Source of the DNA: Terramyces sp. JEL0728
Lineage: Eukaryota; Chytridiomycota; Chytridiomycetes; Rhizophydiales; Terramycetaceae
Direction of reading: 5' to 3'
Assembly (NCBI GenBank): GCA_027603945.1
Contig: JADIIU010000172.1
Location: 1 to 23,827, forward strand
DNA: 23,827 nucleotides
The notes under the pieces were generated by a model that saw only the letters and a list, made by a program, of their open reading frames with translations, did not search any database and was not told the origin of the DNA. This document shows, piece after piece, positions 16,281-17,021 of the stretch (its first letter is position 1; each line of letters begins with the position of its first letter). The position numbers and the translations under genes are program-made.

Positions 16281-17021
16281 ATGGAAGAAATCAGCAGGAA
16301 AAGGAAGCGCACCAGCGAAGAAAAAGCCAAAGAAAGAGTTATTCGCAACCGTCAAGCAGCCCAAGAGTCGAGAGACAGACAGAAAAGATATGTAAAGGAA
16401 TTGGAAGAAGCCAATCAGACGCTGTTGAAAAACAATGAGCTCTTGGTTTCTACTGTCTCTACTCTCCAAGAACAGAACCGCTTGTTATCAGAAAAGCTGG
16501 ACTCTATTCTCTCGCTTTTAAACCAGACGCCTTCCCCAGTACTTTTACCCACTATGGTTGATCCTGTTAATACTCCATTCACGCCAATCATTAATTCGCC
16601 CGCACAAAAGTTGGATACTCCGATATCTCCCGAAAGCTTGTTTTCATTCGACATATCGGGAAAAAGCCCTGTAAATACTATGGATAATTTGGAACTTGTT
16701 GCAGACACAAATGAACTTACGATCGACCAACTATTTAATTTTGATCAAAACGATTTGTACAGTCAAGAACAGGCTTTGCGCGATTCGTCTGACCCAGCAG
16801 CGGTCAAATCTCAGAAGCAGATAGAATCTCCCCAAAGTTTGATGTTTTTTGTCAACCAGTATCTTCCGACCTTGCTCTTTGCAAGTCGCAATTTACTGAG
16901 CAAGAAACAAAATTGTTCTTTGACTTTTGGACAAATTCGTTTGAAGCAACTTTATGAAAGTAGGTTTCCCCTATGTAGTCAGATGTTGGAATTTTTAAAT
17001 AAAAATCATGTCACAAGTTGA
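16281..17021 (+). CDS. HAC1/XBP1-like bZIP transcription factor of the unfolded protein response
   Basis: The unspliced frame gives 246 aa. The basic region (IRNRQAAQESRDRQKR, residues 21-36) has the N-x2-AA-x2-SR core of Hac1/XBP1, preceded by the Hac1-like RKRTSEEKAKERV. Heptad residues L41, L48, L55, L62, L69 and I76 form the zipper. The rest is Ser/Pro/acidic and of low complexity. No spliceosomal intron is needed. Two hairpins at 16790-16822 look like IRE1 sites; removing 16798-16814 yields 16281-16797 plus 16815-16957, 219 aa with a 47-residue acidic and aromatic tail (FTEQETKLFFDFWTN) in place of the basic, hydrophobic unspliced tail. AATAAA at 16998-17003 lies after the spliced stop but before the unspliced one. 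Assignment to HAC1 is strong by basic region; splicing is inference. Confidence 0.82.
   Translation: MEEISRKRKRTSEEKAKERVIRNRQAAQESRDRQKRYVKELEEANQTLLKNNELLVSTVSTLQEQNRLLSEKLDSILSLLNQTPSPVLLPTMVDPVNTPFTPIINSPAQKLDTPISPESLFSFDISGKSPVNTMDNLELVADTNELTIDQLFNFDQNDLYSQEQALRDSSDPAAVKSQKQIESPQSLMFFVNQYLPTLLFASRNLLSKKQNCSLTFGQIRLKQLYESRFPLCSQMLEFLNKNHVTS
16790..16806 (+). promoter_or_regulatory. Candidate IRE1 5' cleavage hairpin in the bZIP mRNA
   Basis: TGACC (16790-16794) pairs perfectly with GGTCA (16802-16806) around the 7-nt loop CAGCAGC. This equals the consensus CNG/CAGC seen in both XBP1 loops, and carries the C1, G3 and G6 required in HAC1/XBP1 sites. Cleavage would fall after G16797. Confidence 0.72.
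16808..16822 (+). promoter_or_regulatory. Candidate IRE1 3' cleavage hairpin in the bZIP mRNA
   Basis: ATCT (16808-16811) pairs perfectly with AGAT (16819-16822) around the 7-nt loop CAGAAGC, which keeps C1, G3 and G6 but has A instead of C at position 4. It is separated from the first hairpin by one base. Cleavage after G16814 would release 17 nt and shift the frame. Confidence 0.6.

What the first reader, a model, noticed from the sequence alone, without database searches (positions are those of the whole stretch)
16790..16822. Candidate IRE1-type unconventional intron of only 17 nt in a HAC1-like gene
Two perfect hairpins, one base apart, carry 7-nt loops CAGCAGC and CAGAAGC with the C1-G3-G6 pattern required for IRE1 cleavage; the first equals the CNG/CAGC consensus of XBP1. 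Cutting after each G3 removes 16798-16814 (17 nt), shifting the frame. The new frame is closed upstream by a TGA at 16790-16792, inside the hairpin, then open for 47 codons to a TGA at 16955, giving an acidic, aromatic activation-like tail. AATAAA lies 41 nt past this stop but inside the unspliced frame. The host protein has a Hac1-type basic region. Known HAC1/XBP1 introns I recall are 19-26 nt or about 250 nt, so this would be the shortest, in a genome whose spliceosomal introns are also minimal.
Basis: partly seen in the sequence, partly recalled or inferred. Interest (0 to 1): 0.95.

Follow-up and report, generated by a model that had tools for sequence, protein, structure and literature searches.

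The report
Tiny IRE1-cut intron in chytrid HAC1
A chytrid fungus's stress-response gene appears to carry a 17-letter segment that the stress sensor IRE1 would cut out of its messenger RNA to change the end of the protein, shorter than any we found reported, although the cutting itself has not been seen.

Summary
In Terramyces sp. JEL0728 (Chytridiomycota), the one HAC1-like bZIP gene found in the genome (16281-17021 +) carries two perfect hairpins with 7-nt loops CAGCAGC and CAGAAGC, one base apart. No other such pair lies within 80 nt on either strand of the window, and three null models give one in 1 to 6 of 20,000 trials. Cutting after each G3 removes 17 nt (16798-16814) and opens a 47-codon tail.

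The IRE1 reading is well supported. The genome has IRE1 with its RNase motif and a trifunctional tRNA ligase. A metagenomic relative and a Rhizophlyctis protein keep residues that permit both hairpins at the aligned places (predicting 20 and 17 nt), and more distant fungi keep similar motifs. Two R. rosea gene models appear to read the downstream DNA in the two frames that splicing would switch.

Not shown: splicing itself, or the relatives' DNA. One relative (P0002) cannot form the 5' loop, the local fold is not unusually stable, and three of eleven GT-AG options here would open the same frame. This is a new member of a known kind, shorter than any length in the papers seen; the main survey was not available.

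The parts
16281..17021 (+). HAC1-like bZIP gene, unspliced reading frame, 246 aa
   Evidence: the ORF listing; bZIP_1 and bZIP_2 over Pfam cut-offs; start agrees with P0005
16323..16490 (+). basic region and leucine zipper (residues 15-70)
   Evidence: Pfam PF00170
16790..16806 (+). 5' splice-site hairpin, 5 bp, loop CAGCAGC (16795-16801), cut predicted after 16797
   Evidence: permitted at the aligned residues of P0005 and P0092
16808..16822 (+). 3' splice-site hairpin, 4 bp, loop CAGAAGC (16812-16818), cut predicted after 16814
   Evidence: permitted at the aligned residues of P0005 and P0002 and P0092
16798..16814 (+). predicted IRE1-excised intron, 17 nt (CAGCGGTCAAATCTCAG)
   Evidence: excision itself not shown
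16815..16957 (+). 3' exon coding tail of the spliced form, 47 codons plus stop; 8 D/E, 4 K/R, 8 F/W/Y
16815..17021 (+). tail of the unspliced form, 68 codons plus stop, resembles P0005 and P0002 tails
16998..17003 (+). AATAAA, 41 nt after the spliced stop and before the unspliced stop
17073..17828 (+). neighbouring ORF, tRNA-intron endonuclease catalytic domain (SEN2-like by recall); the public model HDV01_002309 joins it to the bZIP gene, apparently in error
   Evidence: Pfam PF01974; P0001

Best explanation
This is the chytrid HAC1/XBP1 counterpart, regulated by IRE1 through a 17-nt cytoplasmic intron. Without stress, the unspliced mRNA encodes a 246-aa bZIP protein (open frame shown; translation inferred). 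On ER stress, IRE1 (gene shown; activation inferred) cuts after G3 of both loops, at 16797/16798 and 16814/16815. The trifunctional tRNA ligase Trl1 (gene shown; role inferred from yeast) joins the exons. The frame moves so that the last 74 residues are replaced by a 47-residue acidic, aromatic tail that acts as an activation domain (inferred). The length is close to a geometric floor (inference): 4 nt of loop 1, a 5-nt half-stem, 1 spacer, a 4-nt half-stem and 3 nt of loop 2 make 17.
For: Rare twin hairpins at the expected place, after the zipper. IRE1 RNase domain, E 6e-41; residues 2-149 of a 152-aa stretch match solved IRE1 chains (best 2rio, E 1.5e-43) with RNK-HH kept. Trl1 ORF with ligase, kinase and phosphodiesterase domains. 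The 5' loop register (loop starting at codon position 2) is permitted at only 1 of 167 tail codons here and 1 of 165 in P0005, at the aligned residues S-D-P-A-[AV]-V. P0005 also permits the 3' hairpin (T-S-Q-Q-Q-M, 20 nt) and P0092 of Rhizophlyctis both, at the same 17-nt spacing. The P0092 and P0056 models of R. rosea can read common DNA in frames offset by 2 nt over 10 codons at the 3' hairpin and 27 codons further on; the longest run in 60 shuffles was 14. The window's spliced frame has the same offset.
Against: No RNA evidence. Relatives were seen only as proteins, so their hairpins are permitted, not shown. P0002 (N-P-A-R) cannot form the 5' loop at the aligned place. P0092 has 5 of 250 permitted 5'-register codons, so its site is less specific. 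3'-register sites are commoner (6 of 167, 12 of 165, 11 of 250), and 10 of the 11 proteins laid out have other permitted 3' sites. Those 11 were picked by their 5' motif, and the permitted 3' sites found all had one register, so their lengths being 2 mod 3 is built in and is not independent evidence. A 10-codon frame-shifted run is reached by 3 of 60 shuffles. The two R. rosea models return to one frame downstream (SDLWTPAEGG, EDLWTPADGA) and P0056 lacks the 5' hairpin residues, so at least one model carries other introns. The fold is ordinary and hairpin 2 weakly paired. Three of 11 GT-AG options would open the same frame. The unspliced tail is itself conserved in P0005 and P0002.
Confidence: 0.88

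Rival explanations
1. The hairpins are a coincidence of codon choice; the gene makes only the 246-aa unspliced protein, whose tail is the functional one.
For: The unspliced tail resembles P0005 and P0002 to the C terminus; P0002 lacks the 5' loop residues; the fold is not unusually stable.
Against: 1 to 6 of 20,000 in three null models; both loops are permitted at aligned residues of P0005 and P0092; IRE1 and tRNA ligase are present.
Confidence: 0.05
2. A minimal spliceosomal intron, in a genome where 21-nt GT-AG introns occur, removes this stretch.
For: Three 21-nt GT-AG introns were inferred in two other genes. Of 11 GT-AG options of 12-60 nt touching the hairpins, three (16787-16800, 14 nt; 16787-16824, 38 nt; 16803-16837, 35 nt) would open the same spliced frame.
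Against: The other eight either keep the unspliced frame (four) or stop after one to five codons (four). All 11 begin GTCTGA or GTCAAA, unlike the three inferred introns (GTAAAC, GTGTTT, GTAATC), and none is 21 nt. It does not explain the rare twin hairpins.
Confidence: 0.04
3. IRE1 cuts this mRNA but the ends are not joined: the hairpins serve decay (RIDD-like), as IRE1 does in fission yeast.
For: Similar loops serve decay in other organisms (established knowledge, recalled).
Against: Two sites 17 nt apart, a frame change into an open 47-codon tail and Trl1 present; a model apparently in the spliced frame in Rhizophlyctis, and by motif alone in Borealophlyctis, Nowakowskiella and Quaeritorhiza.
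Confidence: 0.03

Closest known systems
Animal XBP1 mRNA (26-nt intron; recalled)
   Same: bZIP gene, twin hairpins after the zipper, CNG/CAGC-type 5' loop, both loops in the same codon registers (S-A-A and L-Q-Q, recalled), frame shift into a new activation-like tail, open unspliced frame
   Different: 17 nt instead of 26; no convincing hydrophobic HR2-like segment in the Terramyces unspliced tail; ligase probably Trl1, not the animal RTCB type
Short-intron fungal HAC1/hacA (Candida albicans 19 nt, Aspergillus fumigatus 20 nt; PMC3154848 passages)
   Same: fungal bZIP, short unconventional intron near the 3' end, new C terminus
   Different: shorter still; Chytridiomycota; hairpins one base apart
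Saccharomyces cerevisiae HAC1 (252 nt; PMC6116095 passages)
   Same: IRE1 and tRNA ligase machinery
   Different: no long attenuator intron; longest Watson-Crick complementarity of the roughly 200 nt upstream of the ORF is 6 nt to the intron and 7 nt to 16790-16960, the latter matched by 262 of 300 shuffles
Cryptococcus HXL1 (56 nt; PMC3154848 passages)
   Same: CAG at both borders, length 2 mod 3
   Different: much longer intron, divergent bZIP

Membership tests
HAC1/XBP1-type IRE1 substrate mRNA | encodes a bZIP factor with a Hac1/XBP1-like basic region | tested here: met
   PF00170 and PF07716 over cut-off; relatives found are mainly fungal bZIPs; likeness of the basic region to Hac1/XBP1 is recalled, no tree was built
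HAC1/XBP1-type IRE1 substrate mRNA | two hairpins with 7-nt CNGNNGN loops downstream of the zipper | tested here: met
   but ordinary fold energy
HAC1/XBP1-type IRE1 substrate mRNA | excision changes the C-terminal reading frame to another open frame | tested here: met
   47 codons; open in 6.7% of synonymous recodings by chance
HAC1/XBP1-type IRE1 substrate mRNA | genome encodes IRE1 with an intact RNase motif | tested here: met
   (which residues are catalytic is recalled)
HAC1/XBP1-type IRE1 substrate mRNA | genome encodes an exon-joining ligase | tested here: met
   trifunctional Trl1; the RtcB found is over the TIGR03073 cut-off
HAC1/XBP1-type IRE1 substrate mRNA | hairpins conserved in orthologues | tested here: inconclusive
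   protein-level compatibility in P0005 and P0092, not at the 5' site of P0002; no DNA of relatives
HAC1/XBP1-type IRE1 substrate mRNA | IRE1-dependent excision in the cell | not testable with these tools
   needs RNA
Spliceosomal intron | GT-AG (or GC-AG, AT-AC) borders | tested here: not met
   the 17-nt piece is CA...AG; other GT-AG borders nearby remain possible
XBP1u-type co-translational ER tether | strongly hydrophobic segment in the unspliced tail | tested here: not met
   Terramyces best 19-residue mean 0.84 in the unspliced tail; P0005 0.69, reached by 197 of 200 shuffles
Yeast-type intron/5'UTR translational attenuator | long complementarity between intron and 5'UTR | tested here: not met
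   (5'UTR taken as the roughly 200 nt upstream; its true extent is unknown)

The most novel reading that the evidence does not exclude
HAC1 of early-diverging fungi is an XBP1-like dual-coding gene: the unspliced frame carries a selected segment (a hydrophobic, XBP1u HR2-like stretch in Rhizophlyctis, Borealophlyctis, Mortierella relatives and Basidiobolus) overlapping the acidic activation tail of the spliced frame. Co-translational tethering of the unspliced mRNA would then predate the animal-fungal split and have been lost or replaced in yeasts. The 17-nt intron, perhaps shared by Terramyces and Rhizophlyctis, would be the floor set by two adjacent hairpins and the frame rule.
Probability: 0.3. 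Interest if true: 0.7.

Novelty: new member of a known kind. Interest (0 to 1): 0.52.

Why it matters
It would put the IRE1-HAC1 switch in Chytridiomycota with an intron near the physical minimum, so IRE1 would have to cut two hairpins one base apart. That constrains how its protomers share a substrate. The loop registers give a protein-level signature for finding this intron in poorly annotated genomes, where models such as HDV01_002309 miss it. The Rhizophlyctis overlap suggests a testable early origin of XBP1-like dual coding.

Tried and rejected
HR2-like tether in Terramyces: rejected for this gene. Best 19-residue hydrophobicity in the unspliced tail is 0.84; P0005 is no better. It is kept only as the novel case for other lineages, where some rows are no better than shuffles (P0027 146, P0011 69, P0032 59, P0091 40 of 200).

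A conserved chytrid C-terminal motif ([FY]P[LIM]): noted by eye, then dropped, because the Rhizophlyctis and Borealophlyctis copies seem to lie in the spliced frame and those of Terramyces, P0005 and P0002 in the unspliced one.

Spliceosomal mini-intron: first thought excluded by frame; one search showed that three of 11 options would open the same frame, so its odds were raised from 0.02 to 0.04 and those of the best reading lowered from 0.90 to 0.88.

Yeast-type attenuation by 5'UTR pairing: not found. RtcB as the joining ligase: the only RtcB found passes the TIGR03073 cut-off, so Trl1 is the better candidate.

Relatives' DNA: scans of viral contigs and genome contigs with P0005 gave 12 and 40 pattern stretches and no relative by tblastn. 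The third protein search, on the bZIP region, added nothing beyond P0001-P0003 at E up to 0.1. Frame-overlap tests of P0092 against P0029, P0115, P0046 and P0118, and of the window gene, P0005 and P0002 against P0029, P0056, P0115 and P0046, gave runs of at most 9, within the range of the P0092/P0056 shuffles.

Literature: Hooks and Griffiths-Jones 2011, probably the main survey of these introns, is not held, so 'shortest' rests on the papers seen. Papers: PMC6222058 (abstract section and passages), PMC3154848, PMC6116095, PMC4891664 and PMC10512342 (passages); the others only as search listings. A search for HAC1, intron, chytrid and IRE1 found one paper, on anaerobic fungi, whose four shown passages give no intron length or place in such a fungus.

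Full report
What and where. The window is contig C172 of a 15.0-Mb genome. A protein search matches the gene to HDV01_002309 of Terramyces sp. JEL0728, on a contig of the window's own length; Terramyces is a genus of Rhizophydiales, Chytridiomycota. The gene at 16281-17021 (+) encodes 246 aa with a bZIP domain. It is the only HAC1-like gene found in the genome; the next match, on C12, is 39% identical over residues 12-75 only. The public model omits the predicted intron and instead joins the bZIP to a downstream tRNA-endonuclease ORF.

The hairpins. TGACC-CAGCAGC-GGTCA (16790-16806) and ATCT-CAGAAGC-AGAT (16808-16822) are exact. They are the only two such hairpins in the ORF even at 3 bp, and the only pair within 80 nt on either strand of the window. 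Null models give a comparable pair in 6, 2 and 1 of 20,000 trials. The minimum-energy fold of 16770-16840 shows both, with the cross-loop C1-G6 pair, above a basal stem. The energy is nevertheless ordinary (z -0.55), the centroid structure lacks hairpin 2, and hairpin 2 is paired in only about a third of the ensemble in a 320-nt context.

The frame. Removing 16798-16814 gives a 219-aa protein with a 47-residue tail containing 8 acidic, 4 basic and 8 aromatic residues. The spliced frame stays open in 3,327 of 50,000 synonymous recodings, the third frame in 317 of 50,000. The unspliced frame is also open for 68 codons and resembles the tails of two metagenomic relatives, P0005 (35% identical over nearly the whole protein) and P0002.

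The machinery. IRE1 is on C89: kinase, RNase domain and, after removal of a 21-nt intron, a stretch aligning to solved IRE1 chains with RNK-HH kept. A trifunctional tRNA ligase is on C1. An RtcB on C76 passes the TIGR03073 cut-off.

Relatives. Only proteins were available, so I asked which positions could, under some synonymous coding, form a stem of at least 4 bp around a CNGNNGN loop. In the window gene the 5' loop starts at codon position 2 (residues P-A-A) and the 3' loop at codon position 1 (Q-K-Q). As I recall, human XBP1 uses the same registers (S-A-A, L-Q-Q). The 5' register is scarce: 1 of 167 tail codons here, 1 of 165 in P0005 (S-D-P-A-V-V), at the aligned place; P0092 of Rhizophlyctis has 5 of 250, one of them S-D-P-A-A-V. 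The search that found these listed 120 of 145 proteins. Of those 120, 3 lack the bZIP pattern used and 39 have short tails. Of the 78 scored, 40 have CQSA[VA]LA, 5 have [GR]ESA[VA]L, 3 have SDPA[AV]V (one is the window's own public model), 13 have CDSA, 4 have [IV]PA[AV]D and 13, P0002 among them, have none. I laid out 11, window gene included, chosen by 5' motif. Each permits a second hairpin at residues I matched by eye (S-Q-Q-R, S-P-Q-Q-K and similar), predicting 17 (window), 20 (P0005), 17 (P0092), 47, 47, 59, 59, 107, 62, 53 and 59 nt. Lengths of 2 mod 3 follow from the registers, and ten of the 11 have other permitted 3' sites, so this is compatibility, not proof. P0002 permits the 3' hairpin but not the 5' one.

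Two frames in Rhizophlyctis. P0092 and P0056 both bear the name R. rosea, a chytrid of another order, and appear to be models of one gene. At the 3' hairpin, A-V-A-S-Q-Q-R-I-S-S-S in P0092 and G-R-I-P-A-A-D-I-I-K in P0056 can be one DNA read 2 nt apart. Further on, 27 codons do the same, the hydrophobic HPLAFIVATAILHSMVSMIS of P0092 matching the acidic RRDGDPALDGLDDLE of P0056. Shuffled controls reached at most 14 in 60 trials; 3 of 60 reached 10. The window's spliced frame has the same 2-nt offset. The match is not clean: P0056 lacks the 5' hairpin residues, and downstream the two models share one frame again, so other annotated introns must be involved. P0029 of Borealophlyctis has the hydrophobic segment (18 of 22 identical) and also the IPAAD motif of the other frame. 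P0115 of Nowakowskiella holds a DSAAVD and an IPAAD motif in one model, which does not fit simply. Hydrophobic segments also occur in many Mortierella relatives and in Basidiobolus, with shuffle counts from 1 to 146 of 200, but not in Terramyces or P0005.

How it most likely works. Shown: the gene, hairpins, frames and machinery genes. Inferred: stress-activated IRE1 cuts after both G3, Trl1 joins the exons, and the acidic tail makes the active factor. The intron must hold half of each loop and the inner half-stems; with 5- and 4-bp stems and a 1-nt spacer that is exactly 17. The next shorter length opening the same frame, 14, would need one stem shorter than 4 bp. A spliceosomal alternative cannot be dismissed by frame alone: of 11 GT-AG options of 12-60 nt touching the hairpins, three (14, 35 and 38 nt) also open the spliced frame. 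Their GTCTGA or GTCAAA starts differ from the three inferred introns, and they leave the hairpins unexplained.

Comparison and novelty. PMC6222058 gives 19 bases (Candida albicans) as the lower end, and PMC3154848 gives 19-29 nt for the short class. I found no paper on chytrid HAC1 introns in two searches, but the main survey of these introns is not held. It is a new member of a known kind, shorter than any seen in those papers, and its length may be shared with Rhizophlyctis.

Noticed in passing
L007 (G000:C89) reverse strand; L010:3306-3326: Three inferred spliceosomal GT-AG introns of exactly 21 nt (two in IRE1, one in another bZIP gene), close to the shortest known in eukaryotes as far as I recall.
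   Followed up: partly
L010:2616-3842: A second bZIP gene whose next exon, after a 21-nt intron, begins with a hydrophobic stretch (IFLFSIASFLL): possibly a membrane-bound ATF6/CREB3-like factor in a chytrid.
   Followed up: partly
L008:3353-4735: An RtcB-type RNA ligase over the bacterial TIGR03073 cut-off, in a genome that also has a trifunctional Trl1.
   Followed up: partly
P0092 380-407 and P0056 366-392: In Rhizophlyctis rosea a hydrophobic segment and an acidic segment can be two frames of the same DNA for 27 codons, an XBP1-like dual-coding layout.
   Followed up: partly
40 of 78 scored homologue tails: Homologues, mostly named from Mortierella relatives, share CQSA[VA]LA (5' hairpin register), and many have a hydrophobic LPQLMLNFSTLFLI-like segment.
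   Followed up: partly
P0010, P0012, P0075: Mucorales homologues diverge right after FCDSA (CDSAAEV against CDSARIA), the place of the expected 5' cut, as if some models are spliced and others not.
   Followed up: no
17073-17828: A tRNA-splicing endonuclease subunit ORF lies 51 nt downstream of HAC1 on the same strand; the public model joins the two.
   Followed up: partly
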